DNA of 49,865 nt from Nitrospirota bacterium (GCA_011088105.1 JAALKI010000020.1:1-49865); one strand, 5' to 3'. Shown: positions 24,381 to 33,803, counted from the first letter of the stretch. Numbers and translations are program-made. The notes: generated by a model from the letters alone, not told the origin.

Positions 24381-25088
24381 TTAGCCCCCTAAGGTATCAA
24401 GCGTTTCCTTCAAGCTTTTCATAATACACGTGAAAATAGGGATATCCCGCTTTGTATAGCGACTTCCTTCAGCCTCACGTAGGTGCATGACGAGATCAAG
24501 AAAGTCCTGAGGGGAGTCGGTTTCAAACGCCACAACAAATTCTTGGTCATCCAAGCCAAATGAATAGGTCGTATTGAGTTTTACGGAAGGATAACGATGG
24601 CCGATTTCAATATGTTCATCCATCATCCCCTGTCGAGCGGCCTTGGTTAAGAGGTACCATTCTCGTGTTTTTTCAAAAGGGTACACAAAAATGTATTTTG
24701 CTCGTCCAGGCTTGATGGTGAGGCGTCGACTTTCTTGGTCTTCGTGCACATGATGGTCAACATACACTGAGCGTTTTGTCATAGAAAGATAGGAATAGGG
24801 AGTCGTGAGGTATTTGCCGAGTCCTGTCGCAAGAAGCTTTGACATCATTTCTTGAAAGAGCTCAAGCTCATAAGAAATCCTCCAGAGCAAAAAATCACAG
24901 TCTCCTCGAATCCCTATCGTGGTATAAGGAATCAGAATGACTTTCCCGGCATATTCTTCGACGACGTGAAGAAATTCCTGTTTGCCTGCTTGACGTTCGT
25001 CATGGGGAAGCCGACGCCAAGCGGGATCGACCTTATGAAAGCTAAAATTCACAAACTGACGTTTGGCGGGCGCTTCTCCTCCGCTCAT
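24381..25088 (-). CDS. Chlorite-dismutase-family heme protein, coproheme decarboxylase (ChdC/HemQ) type
   Basis: 235 aa with a strong GGAGG 6 bases upstream. Family fold: proximal heme ligand His159 (MMDEHIEIGHRYP), Tyr136 in FVYPFEK, the position of the catalytic Tyr of coproheme decarboxylases, and SFGLDDQEFVVAFETD. True chlorite dismutases such as that of Nitrospira defluvii have a catalytic Arg just before this strand; aligned on V-K the residue here is Leu171, so chlorite dismutation is unlikely. It probably finishes coproporphyrin-dependent heme synthesis. It sits 186 bases after pafA, close enough to share transcripts with the proteasome locus but with room for its own promoter. Confidence 0.85.
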   Translation of the reverse strand: MSGGEAPAKRQFVNFSFHKVDPAWRRLPHDERQAGKQEFLHVVEEYAGKVILIPYTTIGIRGDCDFLLWRISYELELFQEMMSKLLATGLGKYLTTPYSYLSMTKRSVYVDHHVHEDQESRRLTIKPGRAKYIFVYPFEKTREWYLLTKAARQGMMDEHIEIGHRYPSVKLNTTYSFGLDDQEFVVAFETDSPQDFLDLVMHLREAEGSRYTKRDIPIFTCIMKSLKETLDTLGG

Positions 25089-25274: not shown

Positions 25275-26762
25275 CTAGCCTGAGACATCTGTTGGGCAGT
25301 CTGATAGATGCTCTCGAACTGCCTGGGTATAAGTCTTAAAGGGATTTGGCATTCGGAACGGGGGATGTCCACGTACCTGAAATGCCGACCAATGAATCAC
25401 GTAATCGAGGTCTCGTGTGGAGGAGGTAGAATGGAGTGGGCGATCATGCGATGACTGATTCACAAGATGTCGCACGAGTTCGCCACGACCAAATGCCCGA
25501 GTGTTCCTCGGTGGGTGGTGCATGGCAATGTCTACGGCGGGGTCAGTGACCATCCGTATGGCTTGTCCTTCGTCTTCTAATCCAAAGTACAGGCCTTTGT
25601 CTCGGTAGATATTGTGATATTCCAGATCCAGACTTTTTAGCCATGGATCATCCCAGCCAACTTGTTCTTCTTTTCGAAAAGAATCAAGAAGCCAAAGTTT
25701 AGAAGCCCAGTCAACTCGTCCGACAAGGCGGGTATACTCTCCGCGTAAATCTGTGAGTACGCCTTCCCATTGTTCAAGGACCCAGTCGGTTTCCTCGTCT
25801 TGTCCACGACAATATTTTTGGGCAGCCTGTAAATATTGCTCTTGTATATCAACAGCAGACATCGTTTTGCCCGAGGCAAGTGTGACAACCCAAGCACGCT
25901 CTGGGTCACAAGAAATGTCTCGTAAGATTTGGACAGGTTCGTCGATATCTAAGCCTTCTGGGATATGCTGGTCTTCAATCAATTGAAGCATGAGCCCTGT
26001 GGTGCCGAATTTGAGTGCAGTGGCAATTTCCGACATATTTGAATCACCAAGGAGAAGGTGAATCCGACGGAACTGGTTGGGGTCGGCCAGTGGCTCATCT
26101 CTTGTATTAATAATGGCGCGGCTATGTTGGATCCATTCAAAGAAGTCAGTCACGATGTGATCAGCCCGCTGAGAAATTTGAAAGGGGATGAGGGGGCGTG
26201 CTGCCGCTGTTATATGGGGATGCAGGCTGTCAATGGGGATCCAGCCATCGATTGATTGGGCCCTGCCAATTCGTCCGGCTCCTGTAAAAATCTGCCGTGT
26301 AACTAAAAATGGGATGAGTTTCGTCAGGCCTTCCAAGTTGAAGGGAAAATTCCTGGTGACCAAATAGTTTTCATGTGATCCAAATGTGGCGTTCGTTTCA
26401 TGGTCGATGTTGTTTTTAATAAAAGAGACGTGATCCTCAAGGCCCAGTTCTTGAAGCGCCGTTTGGAGAATTTGGTCTCCAGCTCTAGAAAATGCCACGA
26501 GGTCAGAGAGCGTATGGCATTCAGGTGTTGCAAATTCGAGATGTCCCATGTCGACATACAATCGGCCTGCGTTGGTGAGAAATCCTCCGTTTCCAGGAGG
26601 TTCATCATGTCCTCGATAGTGAAGATCAATGATCCCATTGCGGGTTGTATGAAACACATGGTCGATCAGATGTCGTGTCAGCCATGAAGGTGAACGAATC
26701 GTCGCATCCTCATGAATGAGAAGGCCATATTCTGTTTCAAGGCCAAAGATGCGATTGCGCAT
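25275..26762 (-). CDS. pafA: PafA-type ligase for the ubiquitin-like tag
   Basis: 495 aa of the Dop/PafA carboxylate-amine ligase family. IFGLETEYGLL at the N-terminus supplies the Mg/ATP glutamates; RLYVDMGHLEFATPEC carries the catalytic Asp; INTRDEPLAD and LLLGDSNMSE follow, then SLDLEYHNIYRDKG. It lacks the loop insertion seen after residue 30 in the second family member at 28584, so this one is assigned as the ligase that joins the C-terminal Glu of UBact to substrate lysines. It is the last gene of the core locus, 29 bases after prcA. Confidence 0.9.
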   Translation of the reverse strand: MRNRIFGLETEYGLLIHEDATIRSPSWLTRHLIDHVFHTTRNGIIDLHYRGHDEPPGNGGFLTNAGRLYVDMGHLEFATPECHTLSDLVAFSRAGDQILQTALQELGLEDHVSFIKNNIDHETNATFGSHENYLVTRNFPFNLEGLTKLIPFLVTRQIFTGAGRIGRAQSIDGWIPIDSLHPHITAAARPLIPFQISQRADHIVTDFFEWIQHSRAIINTRDEPLADPNQFRRIHLLLGDSNMSEIATALKFGTTGLMLQLIEDQHIPEGLDIDEPVQILRDISCDPERAWVVTLASGKTMSAVDIQEQYLQAAQKYCRGQDEETDWVLEQWEGVLTDLRGEYTRLVGRVDWASKLWLLDSFRKEEQVGWDDPWLKSLDLEYHNIYRDKGLYFGLEDEGQAIRMVTDPAVDIAMHHPPRNTRAFGRGELVRHLVNQSSHDRPLHSTSSTRDLDYVIHWSAFQVRGHPPFRMPNPFKTYTQAVREHLSDCPTDVSG

Positions 26763-26791
26763 GATAAGCGAGGTGTCAGGTCAATCCTTTG

Positions 26792-27610
26792 CTATGGGCG
26801 ATGGTCAAGCATGGAAGCTAGGCGCTGCGTTCCTTCTGTTTGAGAGATGGTTCGATAGGTGGATGGGGTCGATGTTTGCCGATCAAGTACCACACATTCC
26901 AGGTCTTTATTTGTCTGGATGTCACGGAGATGTTGCAATATCTGGTTTTTATCAGGCGTCAAGGGGACAGTTGGATCGTCTGATGGAGGATGGGGGTCTT
27001 TCACGCTGTCATGGTCTTGCTGTTGTTGCCACGATGCCATGCCCCAGGCATAGAGTGCTGTCTCAAAGGCTTCATCAAGAGACGGTCGGGGATACTTACC
27101 ATGGGCTTTGAGGTAGGCCGTGATGTGTTCATGCGCGTCAGCGCTGGAAGCCAGAACCCCAAATCCTGTTGATTCTTCAAATGTTCCATCATAGTCGCAG
27201 GTGAGAAATGTGTCGTGTTCAGGGCGGAGTCCTAAGTCAGCCAAGAGAAGTTTTGTAATAAAAGGGGCCTTGAAAATTTCTTCATAGGCCTGTTTGAGGG
27301 TTGGGGCTAATCCATACTTCATGAGCCGAGACCCAGTGACATCAGAAGGGGACCGTTGGAAGCCTTCCAAGTGGGCCATATCCAAGATTTGCCCACGGAG
27401 TGTCTCAAGATCTGCTGGATGTCCTATCCCTCCTAATGCAAGACGATCGTACACCTCATATAATTTAGGCGTTTTCTGGTTGAAGGTGGCCAAGACAATG
27501 CCTTCATGAAATGAAATGGCAACGATTGGACTTCCATGGCGAAGCTGTTCGTCTAGGTACTGGCGACGGTTGCTGACGGCCTCAACCCACCGATAGGGTT
27601 CTTCATACAT
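26792..27610 (-). CDS. prcA: Proteasome alpha subunit
   Basis: 272 aa from ATG 27610, which overlaps the end of prcB by 8 bases; the frame extends back to 27631 but that lies deep inside prcB. Conserved alpha features: MYEEPYRWVEAVSNRR, then SPIVAISFHEGIVLATF and LALGGIGHPADLETLR. Forms the outer rings and gate of the 20S core that dock the ATPase. The C-terminal 70 residues (Pro/Asp-rich, then LECVVLDRQTS) are longer than the barrel requires. Catalytic Thr absent, as normal for alpha subunits. Confidence 0.9.
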   Translation of the reverse strand: MYEEPYRWVEAVSNRRQYLDEQLRHGSPIVAISFHEGIVLATFNQKTPKLYEVYDRLALGGIGHPADLETLRGQILDMAHLEGFQRSPSDVTGSRLMKYGLAPTLKQAYEEIFKAPFITKLLLADLGLRPEHDTFLTCDYDGTFEESTGFGVLASSADAHEHITAYLKAHGKYPRPSLDEAFETALYAWGMASWQQQQDHDSVKDPHPPSDDPTVPLTPDKNQILQHLRDIQTNKDLECVVLDRQTSTPSTYRTISQTEGTQRLASMLDHRP

Positions 27611-28391
27611 GATGGGCCACCTGAGCATCAAATAACATTCGTAATCGGTCGGATGGTACGGTGACGATGCCTTGTTCCGTAATGCATTTCATGGTTGGAA
27701 AAAGATGAGCTTCTCGATTGATCCCGCCGGTGGCCGAATCAAATTCTGCTGCACTGACGAGCAGCTTGAGAATAAGCACAATGGCCTGTTCTTCATCATA
27801 GTGACTGAGTGGCTGTTCGCTCCACCGGTTGAGGTAATGCAGAATTCCACGAATTGTGGGAGAGCCTGATCCTGAAATCGCATGGTCGACTCCCTCAAAT
27901 TCAGCTCCTAAAATATCATAGAAAAATATTTTGCTTGTCTGTTGCTGAGAATCATAGCCTGCAAAGATGGGAGCGACCGCGCCCGTTCCTGCAAGTGCGG
28001 CTGGACTGTTATCTTTTAGCAGTTTTGTTAACGCCCGCAACTTTCCTTCAAAAGACAAATCTTGAAGCTGACTTCGCCGATAATATTTGAACGAATGTTC
28101 TAAAACTCTGGCCATCTCAAAGGCTGTGGCTGGTGCGCCTGCAATGGCTATCACAGAGGAGCGATCAAGTTCTAACACCTTCTCTGTTCTATCATACATC
28201 ACGATATTTCCTGCCGTTGCTCGTCGATCTCCTGCGACGAGGACACCATCCTGGTATTTCACGGCCAAGACTGTGGTCCCTTGGGTCATAGCAGGTGACA
28301 AGGTCTCAGTGGGGACATGTGGCATCGGAGAGGGTTGAAACTGATAGCCTTCTTCACGAAGAAGCCGAACAAAATCACCTTGTTGGTTCAT
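27603..28391 (-). CDS. prcB: Proteasome beta subunit
   Basis: 262 aa from ATG 28391, 4 bases after the UBact stop; a longer frame to 28442 lies inside UBact. A 38-residue propeptide precedes Gly38, after which autocatalysis would expose Thr39 as Thr1 in GTTVLAVKY. Counting from Thr1, Asp17 (AGDRRAT) and Lys33 (TEKV) are both present, so it should be active. Later motifs: GSGSPTIRGILHY and SAAEFDSATGG. GGAGAA inside the last UBact codons is its ribosome site, implying coupled translation. Confidence 0.95.
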   Translation of the reverse strand: MNQQGDFVRLLREEGYQFQPSPMPHVPTETLSPAMTQGTTVLAVKYQDGVLVAGDRRATAGNIVMYDRTEKVLELDRSSVIAIAGAPATAFEMARVLEHSFKYYRRSQLQDLSFEGKLRALTKLLKDNSPAALAGTGAVAPIFAGYDSQQQTSKIFFYDILGAEFEGVDHAISGSGSPTIRGILHYLNRWSEQPLSHYDEEQAIVLILKLLVSAAEFDSATGGINREAHLFPTMKCITEQGIVTVPSDRLRMLFDAQVAHHV

Positions 28392-28395
28392 GAGT

Positions 28396-28572
28396 TTATT
28401 CTCCCGTACGTTGGCGATAGCGTTCGGCCTGTTTCGGGTCAACCTTTTTCATACGTTGAAGCAGCCTCTCTCGCATCGGAGCTTGAGAGTCGAGCCGTTT
28501 AGGGCCGCTGGTTTCTTCAGTTGGCCCAGAAGGTTTGGGCTGTGGGTCTAGGGGGGATTCTCGTCTTTCCAT
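28396..28572 (-). CDS. ubact: UBact, ubiquitin-like protein modifier
   Basis: 58 aa: MERRESPLDPQPKPSG start, an Arg/Gln-rich central helix MRERLLQRMKKVDPKQAERY and the C-terminus RQRTGE. This matches UBact, the Pup-like tag described in Nitrospirae and other Gram-negative phyla, which ends R-T/S-G-E/Q. The terminal residue is already Glu, so no deamidation is needed before ligation. ATG 28572 is chosen as it gives the standard length and has GGAG 7 bases upstream; the frame continues to 28587. Natively disordered composition. It lies between dop and prcB, 11 and 4 bases away. Confidence 0.92.
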   Translation of the reverse strand: MERRESPLDPQPKPSGPTEETSGPKRLDSQAPMRERLLQRMKKVDPKQAERYRQRTGE

Positions 28573-28583
28573 CACAACTCCTA

Positions 28584-30095
28584 TCATGTGCCTGCCAATA
28601 ATTGAGTAAAATCAGCAGGGCATTGGGCTTGTTGAAGTGTTTGTTTGACGTGTTGCACGTCCTCGGGTTCTAAGACATGAGAGAGATCTAAGACTACGGA
28701 TGAGCCGCGATCTTTAAAGTGAATGTGTTCCCATTGGATTGCAGTGATCTGTGGGCCAAACCGTTGGACACACCATCCCCGAATGCCTCCACGGGTATCT
28801 GATGGTCCTGTGTGCATGGCAGCCTCAACGAGATTGTTAGGGCAGAGTCGATAGGTTTTTCCTTCGGCTTCAAGGCCTCGAAAGAGCCCTCGGTCGGGAT
28901 GGAGATTATGGTATTCAAGGTCGAGACTGGCTAACCAGGGGGCTGTCCATGGGAGATTTTCTTCTTCTCTAAATGTCTCAAGTAACCACTGTTTGGTAAT
29001 CCAATCAACGTAACCAATGAGCGCCAGTCGGTCTCGTTGGAGACAATCTAATACATGAGCCCATTCTTGTAATATCCAATCTGTTTCCTCATCGACCCCA
29101 GCGAACATGCGTTGGGCTACGGAAAGATATGCGGATTGTAAATCAAGCCCTGAGATCGTCCCATTACGGTTTCTGCCAACAACGGCTTTCAGCTGTGTGT
29201 CTTGAGAGAATATTTTTATCGCCTCGACGGGGTTATCTAATTTCAATTCCGGAGCAGCACCCTGTTTAATCATGTCTAGCACAAGCTGTGTCGTTCCTAC
29301 CTTTAACGCCGTCGCATATTCACACATGTTGGCATCCCCGACAATAAGGTGCAGTCGACGATAGCGTGTTCTGTCTGCATGAGGTTCATCTCGGGTATTG
29401 ACGATAGGTCGATTATGCATGGTATCGACGCTTAATGTTGTTTCGATAAAGTCCGCGCGTTGTGAGAGTTGAAAGGGGCCTTGTTGATACGGAATATCTT
29501 GTCCTTCACGTCCAACCTTTCCTGCGCCGGAAAATAATTGACGGCTGACTAAAAAAGGCAGGAGGCCTTCCGCTAATTGTTCAAAGGAAAGGCTTCGCGG
29601 AAGAAGATAATTGTCATGACATCCATAGCTGTGACCGTGGAAGTCCGTATTGTTTTTGTACAGTTGTAAGGGTGCTCCGGAAATGGTCTGGTTCCGTTTG
29701 TCAGCAGCCTGTTGAACGATCCATTCACCAGCTCGATCATGGGCAACGATATCAATCAGACTGCGACACTCAGGGGTGGAGTATTCAGGATGCGTGTGAT
29801 CATTATAAAAACGAGCTCCATTGGAGAGCACCAGATCACTTTTTGTTTCTTGAAAGGAATGCCCTCGATGGGCATCTTGTTCAGCATATTGTGTTTCTTC
29901 ATGATCCTGTTGAAGGCTGGGCACACAAAATCCACGAAGGTCCTTATGTGGGTTTTCATGTTGATAATCCCATGTTGGGAGAAAGGGGCTTTCGCTATAC
30001 GCGCGGACCAGTGCCATGGACTCATTCACGGCGTCCATATCAGGTACATCTTCACGGATAATGCCGTATTCTGTTTCAATACCTAATAATTGCAT
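28584..30095 (-). CDS. dop: Dop-type depupylase homologue (deamidase/deconjugase)
   Basis: 503 aa. LGIETEYGIIRED with catalytic Glu; an insertion of about 40 residues, PFLPTWDYQHENPHKDLRGF to HRGHSFQETKSD, the Dop loop; then NDHTHPEYSTPECRS with the conserved Asp, LYKNNTDFHGHSYGCHDNYL, INTRDEPHAD and LIVGDANMCEY. These match actinobacterial Dop rather than PafA. With a tag that ends in Glu, deamidation is unnecessary, so its main job is probably removing UBact from substrates. Directly upstream of UBact. Confidence 0.92.
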   Translation of the reverse strand: MQLLGIETEYGIIREDVPDMDAVNESMALVRAYSESPFLPTWDYQHENPHKDLRGFCVPSLQQDHEETQYAEQDAHRGHSFQETKSDLVLSNGARFYNDHTHPEYSTPECRSLIDIVAHDRAGEWIVQQAADKRNQTISGAPLQLYKNNTDFHGHSYGCHDNYLLPRSLSFEQLAEGLLPFLVSRQLFSGAGKVGREGQDIPYQQGPFQLSQRADFIETTLSVDTMHNRPIVNTRDEPHADRTRYRRLHLIVGDANMCEYATALKVGTTQLVLDMIKQGAAPELKLDNPVEAIKIFSQDTQLKAVVGRNRNGTISGLDLQSAYLSVAQRMFAGVDEETDWILQEWAHVLDCLQRDRLALIGYVDWITKQWLLETFREEENLPWTAPWLASLDLEYHNLHPDRGLFRGLEAEGKTYRLCPNNLVEAAMHTGPSDTRGGIRGWCVQRFGPQITAIQWEHIHFKDRGSSVVLDLSHVLEPEDVQHVKQTLQQAQCPADFTQLLAGT

Positions 30096-30113
30096 CAGTA
30101 ATGGAGCCAGTGG

Positions 30114-31940
30114 TCAAATAATCTTCCGAATACGCTGTTCTTTTTTCACTCGGCCTTTCCGAATGGAAGAAATGCCAACGACTTGTTCAGGATGATGATC
30201 GAGCAATTTCAACCATTCTTCGGCTGAATCATCCGGCGGAAGAATTTCTCCCTCATGATATTCATCTGAAATAGATGTTAGAAAGTCGTCCACTGTCACC
30301 CCATGGGAGTCTCCTTGAATCGTCCGTTCAATGGCCCGTTCTTTCCCACGACGGACAATCGAGGCCAAAATGGCTCCACTGACCAAATCACGGTAGTAGA
30401 GTGTGTCACGGCTCCCGTTTCGCAAGCGAATCGATAATACGCGCGTTTCATCGGACTGTTGAAAGATTGCGTTGACGATTTGGTCCACAAGATCAGCCCA
30501 TGCCGCTGCATGATCGCCCTTATGCGCAGCCACGAGCGTAGCATCTAAGGGAATATCATGGGATAGATGAATGTTGATGATCGCCGTAGCTTCTTCTGGA
30601 TTAGGCCGAATGACTCGAATTTTCCGATCAATGCGGCCTGGTCGTAGGACCGCTGGATCTATCAAGTCCGGGCGGTTCGAGGCTAAGATGACGATCACGT
30701 CTAAGAGTGAATCAATGCCGTCCAACTCGCTACAAAACATGGGAACAAGAGTGTTGGAGAGATTATAAGCGCGTAGCGCTCGACGTGTCCCAAGGATAGA
30801 TTCGGCTTCATCGATAAAAATAACGGGAAGAAACCCTGCCTTTCGCCGTTCTCGTGCTTGGGTAAAGAGGTCGCGGATCATCCGTTCGGATTCACCAACC
30901 CACATGTTTAAAATTTCAGGGCCTTTGATATGAAAGAATATTCCTCCGGTAATCGGCGAGGCTTGTGAGGACGAAGTCTGATGGGCATCTTCCTCAGATA
31001 AGGAAGATGGGGCTGTTTCTGGTTCTTTCATTAACTGTCCAAGGCTGGCAGCTGTGGCCTGTCCGATCAAGGTTTTGCCACATCCAGGAGGGCCATGGAG
31101 AAGAAAGCCTTTGGGGCGAATAAACTGGTACTGATCAAACGTCTGTGCATGGAGGAGGGGGTATTCAATCGCACGTCGAATGGATTCAATCGCAGTATGT
31201 TGTCCGCCAATATGTTTCCACGTGATAGAAGGGGCTTCTTCCAGGATATGTGACTGTGACTGTGGTTGTTCAATGCGTTCGATCGCGAGTCGATGGCTTC
31301 CATCCAGACGAATTTCATCTCCTGGTTTCAACTCGAGGTCTTGTATGGCTGTCCCTCGGTTGACAATGACATGCTGTCGGCCGGTCTCGTGGTCGACTCG
31401 AATTCGACCATCGACCAGCGTATCTTTCACTTTGACAATGGGGCCGCTTTGGTCATACCCAATCACTCCAATGAGCGCATAGGCCTCATTCACCAAAATT
31501 TGTATACCTAATTGTAGTGTGGCAGGATCGATACGTGGGTCAATGTTGGTGTAAAACTCTCCTCCACCGACCAGAACATGTGCCATCCCAGATGGAGTCA
31601 GTCCCAACAGCGTGCCAATTCGTTGGGCTGGAGCTGTTAACTGCTCGACAACGGTGGTGATTTTTTTGAATTCGGCTTCACGATGTTGCTGGGCAGCTCC
31701 ATCTTGCAGTAATAGATGACGAAGACGATACAGGCGTTCTTGTTGAGAGAGGTTATCTGGGGTATTCGCAAGGCATTCATCCACTATGACCAATGGATCA
31801 GCAGTTTGCATTGTGGAAGAATCGTTCATGGATGATGAGGATTCATTGTGAGGGTGTTCAGGTGCTTGATTACTCATATGTTTAATGTGTAGAGAAGGTT
31901 GTTCGATGGCCGAAGATGTGTCTGACTGTCCTAATGGCAC
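30114..31940 (-). CDS. Proteasome-associated AAA ATPase (ARC/Mpa)
   Basis: 608 aa from GTG 31940; ATG 31877 (residue 22) is an alternative. Coiled coil about residues 64-110, OB-like domains with VGGGEFYTNIDP and LKPGDEIRLDG, then one AAA+ module: GPPGCGKTLIG (Walker A), VIFIDEAESI (Walker B), ASNRPDLIDPAVLRPGRID (sensor/Arg fingers). A Ser/Glu/Thr-rich insert of about 30 residues follows Walker A, longer than in mycobacterial Mpa. The protein ends RIRKII, without the Gln-Tyr-Leu tail by which Mpa opens the proteasome. First gene of the UBact locus, 18 bases before dop. Confidence 0.93.
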   Translation of the reverse strand: MPLGQSDTSSAIEQPSLHIKHMSNQAPEHPHNESSSSMNDSSTMQTADPLVIVDECLANTPDNLSQQERLYRLRHLLLQDGAAQQHREAEFKKITTVVEQLTAPAQRIGTLLGLTPSGMAHVLVGGGEFYTNIDPRIDPATLQLGIQILVNEAYALIGVIGYDQSGPIVKVKDTLVDGRIRVDHETGRQHVIVNRGTAIQDLELKPGDEIRLDGSHRLAIERIEQPQSQSHILEEAPSITWKHIGGQHTAIESIRRAIEYPLLHAQTFDQYQFIRPKGFLLHGPPGCGKTLIGQATAASLGQLMKEPETAPSSLSEEDAHQTSSSQASPITGGIFFHIKGPEILNMWVGESERMIRDLFTQARERRKAGFLPVIFIDEAESILGTRRALRAYNLSNTLVPMFCSELDGIDSLLDVIVILASNRPDLIDPAVLRPGRIDRKIRVIRPNPEEATAIINIHLSHDIPLDATLVAAHKGDHAAAWADLVDQIVNAIFQQSDETRVLSIRLRNGSRDTLYYRDLVSGAILASIVRRGKERAIERTIQGDSHGVTVDDFLTSISDEYHEGEILPPDDSAEEWLKLLDHHPEQVVGISSIRKGRVKKEQRIRKII

Positions 31941-32357: not shown

Positions 32358-33803
32358 ATGACACATCATGTATTAACGAAGGGGATGGGGGTATGGTCAC
32401 TGGCGATAGTTGGGAGTATGGCCCTTTGGGGGAGTGGATTCATTGCTCCAGTCCATGCTCAAGGCAATTCGGCTAATCCCTTTATTCAAGGTTTTTCTGA
32501 CATTGTCGAGAAAGTTCAACCTACGGTGGTGAATGTTGCCGTGAAAGGACGACAGATGAGCCGCGGTCCACAAGAATTACCGCCAGGTCCGTTTGGTGGC
32601 CCTCCGGGGCGACGTCCGCCAGGTCCTCCAGGAATGAGTGCTGGGTCTGGGGTGATTGTGAATGCTGATGGGTATATCGTGACGAATAATCATGTTGTCG
32701 AAGATGCTGAGGACATTACGGTCACAACCAGTGAAGGTAAAGAATTCTCGGCGCGCATCATTGGGACCGACCCTAAAACAGATCTTGCTGTGATCAAGGT
32801 GGATGGCGCAAACCTTCCTTCACTATCATGGGGAAAGTCTGAAACTCTTCGGGCGGGAGATGTCGTATTGGCTATCGGCAGTCCGTTTGGTCTGAAGTCT
32901 TCGGTGACTATGGGTATTATTAGTGCGTTGGGACGAGGAAATGTGGGGATTACAGAATATGAGGATTTCATTCAAACCGATGCGCCCATTAATCCTGGAA
33001 ACTCTGGTGGTCCATTGGTGAACATGAATGGAGAAATTATCGGCATTAATACAGCGATATTTTCAAGGACGGGTGGATCACAAGGCATTGGATTCGCTAT
33101 TCCTGTCACGATTGCGAAAAACATCGCAGATAGCTTGATTCAATCTGGTCGAGTCGTTCGTGGATGGATGGGCGTAGCAATCCAAGAATTAACGCCAGCG
33201 CTTGCGCAATCCTTTCAATTGCCTGATGGTCATGAAGGTGGTGTGTTGATTAGTGAGGTCCATGAAAATGGACCGTCCGCACAAGGAGGCCTTCGGCAGG
33301 GGGATGTGTTGTTAGAATACCATGGAGAGAGACTCAAAGACGTGAATCACCTGCGACACATTGTCGCGCGTACGAAGGTTGGTGATTCGGTCATGGTCAA
33401 GGTTTTGAGGAATGGAAAAGAGGAAGCTCTCACGATCACCGTTGGTGAGCGACCCTCAGATGATATGTTGGCACAAAAAGGGGACACAGAAATGCCGCAA
33501 CCCCTCGAACCTCTTGATAACGTTCTTGCGGGGCTTTCTGTAGAACCGTTGAATGCTGAACGAAAACAACAATTGAATGTCTCTGGAGATATCGCCGGTG
33601 TGGTTGTGAGTTCGGTGAAAGAAGGCAGTGCCGCTCAAGGCGCTGGCATCCAGCAAGGTGATATTATTCAAGAAGTGAACCGGCAAGCCGTTCAAACTCT
33701 CAGTGATTATCAAACGATTGTATCAAAGGTGACAAAAGACGAACTCGTCGTGTTGCTCATTAACCGGCGTGGCAATAATCTTTTTGTCGCGGTGAATCCT
33801 TAG
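32358..33803 (+). CDS. degP: DegP/DegQ-type periplasmic serine protease
   Basis: 481 aa with signal peptide ending PVHAQG. Trypsin-like domain with triad His112 (TNNHVVEDAE), Asp142 (DPKTDLAVIKVD) and Ser216 (NPGNSGGPL); two PDZ domains (about 270-370 and 385-478). A Pro/Gly-rich LA-loop region, GPQELPPGPFGGPPGRRPPG, contains several PPG runs. Removes misfolded periplasmic proteins. It opens a plus-strand operon with tatC 13 bases downstream, which suits quality control of Tat-exported enzymes. Confidence 0.95.
   Translation: MTHHVLTKGMGVWSLAIVGSMALWGSGFIAPVHAQGNSANPFIQGFSDIVEKVQPTVVNVAVKGRQMSRGPQELPPGPFGGPPGRRPPGPPGMSAGSGVIVNADGYIVTNNHVVEDAEDITVTTSEGKEFSARIIGTDPKTDLAVIKVDGANLPSLSWGKSETLRAGDVVLAIGSPFGLKSSVTMGIISALGRGNVGITEYEDFIQTDAPINPGNSGGPLVNMNGEIIGINTAIFSRTGGSQGIGFAIPVTIAKNIADSLIQSGRVVRGWMGVAIQELTPALAQSFQLPDGHEGGVLISEVHENGPSAQGGLRQGDVLLEYHGERLKDVNHLRHIVARTKVGDSVMVKVLRNGKEEALTITVGERPSDDMLAQKGDTEMPQPLEPLDNVLAGLSVEPLNAERKQQLNVSGDIAGVVVSSVKEGSAAQGAGIQQGDIIQEVNRQAVQTLSDYQTIVSKVTKDELVVLLINRRGNNLFVAVNP

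What the first reader, a model, noticed from the sequence alone, without database searches (positions are those of the whole stretch)
25275..31940. Complete UBact-proteasome locus outside the actinobacteria
Seen: ATPase-Dop-UBact-PrcB-PrcA-PafA in one transcription direction, with gaps of 18, 11 and 4 bases, an 8-base overlap and then 29 bases. Known: UBact (C-terminus RTGE) is the Pup-like tag proposed for Nitrospirae and other phyla and is much less studied than Pup. Everything needed for tagging, removal and degradation is present, and PrcB keeps Thr1, Asp17 and Lys33.
Basis: partly seen in the sequence, partly recalled or inferred. Interest (0 to 1): 0.75.

Follow-up and report, generated by a model that had tools for sequence, protein, structure and literature searches.

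The report
Second tag-and-shred system beside Pup
The locus is a complete copy of a known but little-studied bacterial counterpart of the ubiquitin-proteasome system (UBact), and the same genome also carries a complete second system of the better-known Pup type, so one cell may tag proteins for destruction with two different, oppositely charged tags.

Summary
Six genes (ATPase, Dop, UBact, PrcB, PrcA, PafA) lie on the minus strand at 25275-31940 with exactly the stated spacings, and PrcB keeps Thr1, Asp17 and Lys33. The ATPase start should move to 31877. UBact systems are already known: UBact has Pfam and NCBIfam models.

Of 30 UBact-bearing Nitrospirota genomes tested, 29 also carry Pup.

The two sets differ consistently. 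UBact's C-terminal end is basic, Pup's acidic. In Nitrospirota the UBact PafA and Dop are 14-20 charges more negative than their Pup counterparts, while PrcB is not. UBact ATPases lack the HbYX docking tail and end in two aliphatic residues.

Best reading: a genuine UBact conjugation-proteasome system, probably working beside and insulated from a Pup system. A double system was noted for Leptospirillum ferrooxidans in 2012, so this is a new member of a known kind. Conjugation, docking and orthogonality were not tested. Whether the UBact ligase arose independently of the Pup ligase is unresolved.

The parts
30114..31877 (-). UBact-type proteasomal AAA+ ATPase (Mpa/ARC-like). Tandem OB domains, Walker A GPPGCGKT, pore loop MWVG.
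   Evidence: TIGR03689 428 bits, below its 504.75 cut-off; M22 invariant in 26 orthologues; N-terminal helix 64-102, then OB strands; low-confidence model
30117..30122 (-). C-terminal Ile-Ile of the ATPase in place of an HbYX tail
   Evidence: 31/31 Nitrospirota UBact ATPases end in I-[IV] and 24/24 Pup-type ATPases end in GHY[FL]; Latescibacterota, Poribacteria, Nitrospinota and Armatimonadota all end in [VI]-[IV]
28584..30095 (-). Dop (depupylase-type enzyme, expected to remove the tag)
   Evidence: (PF03136 530 bits; TIGR03688 447 bits, better than the PafA model at 361)
29832..29972 (-). Dop-loop (WDYQHENPHKDLRGF... up to the LSNGARFY strand), the hallmark insertion of Dop
   Evidence: alignment with A. 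cellulolyticus and M. tuberculosis Dop
28396..28572 (-). UBact tag, 58 aa; basic C-terminal half, ends YRQRTGE
   Evidence: PF20513, NF033388 over cut-off; only copy in the genome; net charge +5 in the last 30 residues
27603..28391 (-). PrcB, catalytic 20S beta subunit: 38-residue propeptide, then Thr1, with Asp17 and Lys33
26792..27610 (-). PrcA, 20S alpha subunit, with a conserved Lys49 at the ATPase-tail pocket position (aligned with the lysine of KVSELYDR in solved bacterial alpha subunits; its role in the pocket is from general knowledge) and a longer, partly disordered C-terminal half
   Evidence: (K49 invariant in 28 orthologues)
25275..26762 (-). PafA-type UBact ligase: catalytic Asp71, Arg137/215/221/232, no Dop-loop
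26118..26159 (-). Alpha-loop of the UBact ligase (HIVTDFFEWIQHSR), unlike both the Pup-PafA and the Dop versions
   Evidence: compared with the diagnostic table of PMC7947786

Best explanation
The locus encodes a UBact conjugation-proteasome system in a Nitrospirota bacterium of the order that includes Nitrospira. Likely working: PafA uses ATP to activate the C-terminal glutamate of UBact and joins it to lysines of target proteins; Dop removes it. The ATPase hexamer captures the basic helical half of UBact through its N-terminal helical region, threads the disordered N-terminus and feeds the substrate into a 20S core of PrcA and PrcB. It stands beside a complete Pup-type system in the same genome, and the two are probably insulated: the tags have opposite charge, the PafA and Dop of the UBact set carry a matching extra negative charge, and each set has its own ATPase with its own tail type. 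Shown here: gene content, gene order, catalytic residues, coexistence, charge difference and absence of HbYX. Inferred: conjugation, recognition through charge, docking through the aliphatic tail, and insulation.
For: Gene content and families. Catalytic residues shared by all four enzyme groups, including E9/E11 and D71 of PafA. PrcB Thr1/Asp17/Lys33; the same motif in relatives. PrcA fold. Conserved operon: 35 related Nitrospirota loci, some truncated by contig ends, and loci from Nitrospinota, Latescibacterota, Poribacteria and Armatimonadota. Second set in the same genome. Pup. Coexistence. Charge: UBact's last 30 residues +3 to +5, against -5 to -9 for Pup; median PafA -27 (UBact) against -7 (Pup), Dop -24 against -10, PrcB -4 against -5; repeated in other phyla. 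ATPase tails.
Against: No conjugate, expression or binding data exist for this organism. The ATPase has no HbYX, so docking to this 20S is not implied by precedent. Whole-protein charge is a coarse measure, the sequences are related (non-independent), and the extra negative charge was not placed on the tag-binding groove; PrcA is also more acidic in the UBact set, and Armatimonadota show a weaker shift. UBact and Pup end alike (YxQ[KR]xG[EQ]), so some cross-recognition is possible. The genome is a draft of 70 contigs.
Confidence: 0.75

Rival explanations
1. The UBact set is a conjugation system that is not, or only loosely, coupled to its own 20S core: UBact marks proteins for another purpose, or its substrates are degraded by the Pup-type Mpa-20S, and the local ATPase acts as a free unfoldase.
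For: UBact ATPases lack HbYX in every phylum sampled. The UBact PrcA has diverged strongly (27% identity to the Pup-type PrcA of the same genome).
Against: prcB and prcA stay inside the operon in nearly all loci. PrcB keeps its catalytic residues. The alpha-ring pocket lysine is invariant in the Nitrospirota set. The ATPase tail is itself conserved as [IV]-[IV], which suggests that it is functional.
Confidence: 0.15
2. The two systems are partly redundant copies that share tags and enzymes rather than two insulated pathways.
For: The tags share YxQ[KR]xG[EQ] and similarly placed hydrophobic residues. The catalytic residues and the substrate-facing site-2 arginines are the same. UBact sets are absent from many Pup-bearing relatives, as for a dispensable copy.
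Against: Opposite tag charge and matching enzyme charge, 27-40% identity between partners, different ATPase tails, and strict conservation of each set over the phylum.
Confidence: 0.2
3. The second, Pup-type set is contamination of the draft genome and the organism has only UBact.
For: The sets lie on different contigs of a 70-contig draft.
Against: Single-contig relatives carry both (for example G054, G183, G187, G245). Contamination is estimated at 0.34%. G+C is similar: window 47.1%, C39 stretch 47.0%. The Pup gene lies beside the same proton-pyrophosphatase gene as in 18 of 30 relatives.
Confidence: 0.03

Closest known systems
UBact-proteasome systems (Lehmann et al. 2017, BBRC 483:946, cited in PMC5751360; not readable here)
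   Same: Tag family (PF20513, NF033388), RTGE end and an operon with proteasome genes; presence in Nitrospirae is from general knowledge and the curated models
   Different: No difference found in the locus itself. I could not check whether that paper reports coexistence with Pup, the charge inversion or the missing HbYX.
Pup-proteasome system of Actinobacteria (Pup, PafA, Dop, Mpa/ARC, PrcBA)
   Same: Same enzyme families, same catalytic residues, similar gene order
   Different: Basic instead of acidic tag; no HbYX/GQYL tail; different alpha-loop in the ligase; all window proteins score below the Pup-type NCBIfam equivalog cut-offs
Double pupylation loci L1 and L2 of Leptospirillum ferrooxidans (PMC3511204, Fig. 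2 legend)
   Same: Two complete systems in one Nitrospirota genome, very different in sequence; the L2 tag lacks the terminal GGE, as UBact does
   Different: There both loci are described as identical in genetic context. In Nitrospirales, wherever Pup and its operon were both located, the Pup gene lies away from its operon. The 2012 note predates the name UBact, and that L2 is UBact-type is my inference.
Gram-negative bacterial alpha/beta subcluster (PMC5666114, 2017)
   Same: PrcA and PrcB of Nitrospirae, Armatimonadetes and Verrucomicrobia form a separate cluster from the actinobacterial ones
   Different: The passages read do not discuss tags or two cores in one genome

Membership tests
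UBact-proteasome system | Tag gene matching the curated UBact model over its cut-off | tested here: met
   NF033388 69 bits (cut-off 35), PF20513 62.6 bits (cut-off 27.8)
UBact-proteasome system | C-terminus R[TS]G[EQ] | tested here: met
   RTGE in the window; in 72 tags RTGE 58, RTGQ 8, RSGE 5, RSGQ 1
UBact-proteasome system | Operon ATPase-Dop-UBact-PrcB-PrcA-PafA | tested here: met
   Nitrospinota show one rearrangement
UBact-proteasome system | Catalytic residues of ligase, Dop and PrcB intact | tested here: met
UBact-proteasome system | UBact-lysine conjugates formed and degraded | not testable with these tools
   needs proteomics and reconstitution
Pup-proteasome system (as in Actinobacteria) | Tag matching the Pup family (PF05639) | tested here: not met
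   The whole-genome search finds only the C70 gene, not the window tag, at E up to 10
Pup-proteasome system (as in Actinobacteria) | Enzymes over the Pup equivalog cut-offs (TIGR03686, 03688, 03689, 03690, 03691) | tested here: not met
   325/551, 447/492, 428/505, 162/192 and 56/139 bits for the window set. All five C39 proteins pass their cut-offs.
Pup-proteasome system (as in Actinobacteria) | ATPase C-terminal HbYX/GQYL docking motif | tested here: not met
   Window ATPase ends RKII; 0 of 31 relatives have it
PafA (Pup ligase) by residue signature | No Dop-loop; PafA-type alpha-loop and flanking residues of PMC7947786 Table 1 | tested here: inconclusive
   No Dop-loop; F61, A78, H202 and S214 are PafA-like; most alpha-loop positions are neither PafA- nor Dop-like; P80 is Dop-like, as in Nitrospirota Pup-PafA

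The most novel reading that the evidence does not exclude
The UBact ligase did not descend from the Pup ligase: a ligase evolved from a Dop-like hydrolase twice, once in the Pup lineage and once in the UBact lineage. Nitrospirota now run both as insulated systems whose tags have opposite charge and whose ATPases dock by different tails.
Probability: 0.22. Interest if true: 0.75.

Novelty: new member of a known kind. Interest (0 to 1): 0.5.

Why it matters
Most bacteria have no proteasome; these carry two complete tag-and-degrade gene sets side by side, across an order of bacteria that includes the nitrifier Nitrospira. That is a natural test of how a tag, its ligase and its unfoldase stay specific. 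The opposite charge of the two tags gives a simple prediction that can be tested with a few purified proteins. A proteasomal ATPase family with a conserved non-HbYX tail also asks how else an ATPase can open a 20S gate.

Tried and rejected
That the tagless second operon on C39 borrows UBact: rejected, since a Pup gene lies elsewhere in the genome, as in 57 of 60 relatives, and outside Nitrospirales Pup sits in the operon.

Contamination as the source of the second set: rejected.

HslV as the extra PF00227 match on C12: it lies beside an HslU gene, an ordinary HslVU pair.

Two origins of the ligase: the best tree pairs the UBact PafA with the UBact Dop (SH-aLRT 98, 89), but a tree uniting both PafA groups is not rejected (lnL 8.1 lower, p-AU 0.305), so it is left open.

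UBact-Pup homology by profile comparison: the same register as by eye, but not significant (E 0.06, probability 0.9%).

The ATPase model was poor (pLDDT 67.5, pTM 0.47), so only its helix outline is used. The weak second UBact match in G183 did not resolve into a credible tag gene.

Literature: the original UBact paper is not in the library, so whether it reports coexistence with Pup is unknown to me.

Full report
1. The observation. On the minus strand the window holds, in order of transcription, a proteasomal ATPase (stop at 30114), Dop (30095-28584), UBact (28572-28396), PrcB (28391-27603), PrcA (27610-26792) and PafA (26762-25275). The spacings of 18, 11 and 4 bases, the 8-base overlap and the 29-base gap are exactly as reported. 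Family models confirm each protein: UBact is over the cut-off of both its curated models, Dop and PafA are strong PF03136 members, PrcB and PrcA are PF00227 members, and the ATPase has AAA and tandem OB domains. Two remarks apply. The ATPase most likely starts at ATG 31877, because that methionine is invariant in 26 orthologues. PrcA is so divergent that sequence alone gives only 26.5 bits; a model built on 28 orthologues (pLDDT 82.5) matches the M. tuberculosis alpha subunit with a target TM-score of 0.83, which supports its fold.

2. Catalysis. The mature PrcB begins at residue 39 (aligned to residue 1 of solved beta chains) and keeps Thr1, Asp17 and Lys33. Sixty-four positions are invariant (at least 95%) across UBact-type and Pup-type PafA and Dop of Nitrospirota, including the GxExE motif. 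The catalytic Asp, the Arg that contacts the Pup C-terminus in C. glutamicum PafA (R201, PMC8599861) and the site-2 arginines that read substrates (PMC10465538) are all kept in the window ligase. The UBact-type Dops carry the Dop-loop, and the window PafA does not.

3. The surprise: a second system. A whole-genome search found four Pup-ligase family genes and two alpha/beta pairs. The second set lies on contig C39: ATPase, Dop, PrcB, PrcA, PafA (L006 6998-13245), all five over the Pup-type NCBIfam cut-offs, with an Mpa-like tail GHYF. Only 30 bases separate its Dop and PrcB, so its tag is not there. A clear Pup gene (72 bits, ending GGQ) lies on contig C70. Partners of the two sets share only 27-40% identity.

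4. How general. Of 60 genomes of the same order, UBact was found in 36 (35 over the cut-off) and Pup in 57. In 296 genomes of the phylum UBact was found in 104. Of 30 UBact genomes tested, 29 also carry Pup and 28 have at least four ligase-family matches; the exceptions are G320 with three, and G076, a single-contig genome with a full UBact operon and no Pup. In the genomes outside the order Nitrospirales that were checked, Pup lies between Dop and PrcB as in Actinobacteria (for example G165; L241 and L242). Inside the order it has moved tens of kilobases or more away, or to another contig, in 19 of 31 tag loci next to a proton-pyrophosphatase gene. Named relatives of the UBact operon include Nitrospira, Nitrospinota, Latescibacterota, Poribacteria and Armatimonadota.

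5. What separates the two sets. (a) Tag charge: the last 30 residues of UBact carry +3 to +5 in Nitrospirota and up to +7 elsewhere; those of Pup carry -5 to -9. (b) Enzyme charge: in Nitrospirota the median net charge is -27 for UBact PafA against -7 for Pup PafA, and -24 against -10 for Dop. PrcB (-4 against -5) shows no such shift. The shift recurs in Latescibacterota, Poribacteria and Nitrospinota and is weaker in Armatimonadota. PrcA is also more acidic, and UBact ATPases are strongly acidic in Latescibacterota and Poribacteria, so the shift is not confined to the two tag enzymes everywhere. (c) Six alignment columns change in the same way in both PafA and Dop between the systems (at a 70% majority threshold), four of them between window PafA residues 362 and 384, including Lys to Glu at 366; I could not verify whether these line the tag groove. 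(d) ATPase tails: all 31 Nitrospirota UBact ATPases end in I-[IV] and all others sampled end in [VI]-[IV]; all 24 Pup-type ATPases end in GHY[FL]. The pocket lysine of PrcA is invariant, so docking by the C-terminal carboxylate remains possible. (e) The ligase alpha-loop of the UBact type is conserved but unlike that of Pup-PafA or Dop.

6. Working model. PafA activates the UBact glutamate with ATP and joins it to lysines; Dop removes it; the ATPase captures the basic helical part, unfolds the substrate and passes it to the PrcA-PrcB core. The charge pattern suggests that the two systems ignore each other's tags. Only gene content, residues, coexistence, charge and tail type are shown; the rest is inference from the Pup system.

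7. Evolution. Trees place UBact PafA with UBact Dop and Pup PafA with Pup Dop (SH-aLRT 98 and 89), which, with the root between the two systems, would mean that a ligase arose twice. The opposite grouping of both PafAs is not rejected (p-AU 0.305), long branches are involved, and enzymes that bind the same tag may be drawn together by shared selection. I leave this open as the most novel reading.

8. Known or new. UBact systems are known: Pfam and NCBIfam hold them, and Lehmann et al. 2017 is cited in PMC5751360. A double pupylation system in Leptospirillum ferrooxidans, one tag lacking GGE, was noted in PMC3511204. A separate gram-negative proteasome cluster was noted in PMC5666114. The order-wide coexistence, the exile of Pup from its operon, the charge inversion and the missing HbYX were not found in the papers I could search, but the key UBact paper was not available. 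I therefore file the locus as a new member of a known kind, with a moderate interest score.

Noticed in passing
L042 1495-1698 (contig C70) and loci L073-L102: In Nitrospirales the Pup gene lies far from its operon, in 19 of 31 loci next to a proton-pyrophosphatase gene; outside the order it is still between Dop and PrcB.
   Followed up: partly
L201, L203, L204, L218 (Nitrospinota): The UBact operon is rearranged: PrcA lies between Dop and UBact, giving Dop-PrcA-UBact-PrcB-PafA.
   Followed up: no
L174, L193, L194, L196, L244: Some UBact tags end in RTGQ instead of RTGE, so a deamidation step by Dop may be needed there.
   Followed up: no
L244 4371-10912 (G076): One single-contig genome carries only the UBact system and no Pup, against 29 of 30 with both.
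   Followed up: partly
genus g3 and family f2: Many relatives keep the Pup system but have no UBact set, which points to repeated loss of UBact.
   Followed up: no
24381-25088: A chlorite dismutase/HemQ-family gene lies just downstream of PafA; it was not found next to the UBact operon in 35 related loci.
   Followed up: partly
32358-33803: A Do/HtrA-family serine protease is divergently transcribed from the operon; a homologue lies near it in 9 of 35 related loci.
   Followed up: partly
L137 6920-10422 (G009): A UBact locus with PrcB, PrcA and PafA but no detectable Dop or ATPase upstream; a run of unknown bases lies in the tag gene.
   Followed up: no
26583-26633 (PafA residues 44-60): A UBact-ligase-specific insertion around RGHDEPPGNGGF is largely invariant in Nitrospirota and partly kept in other phyla, at the place where Dop has the Dop-loop.
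   Followed up: partly
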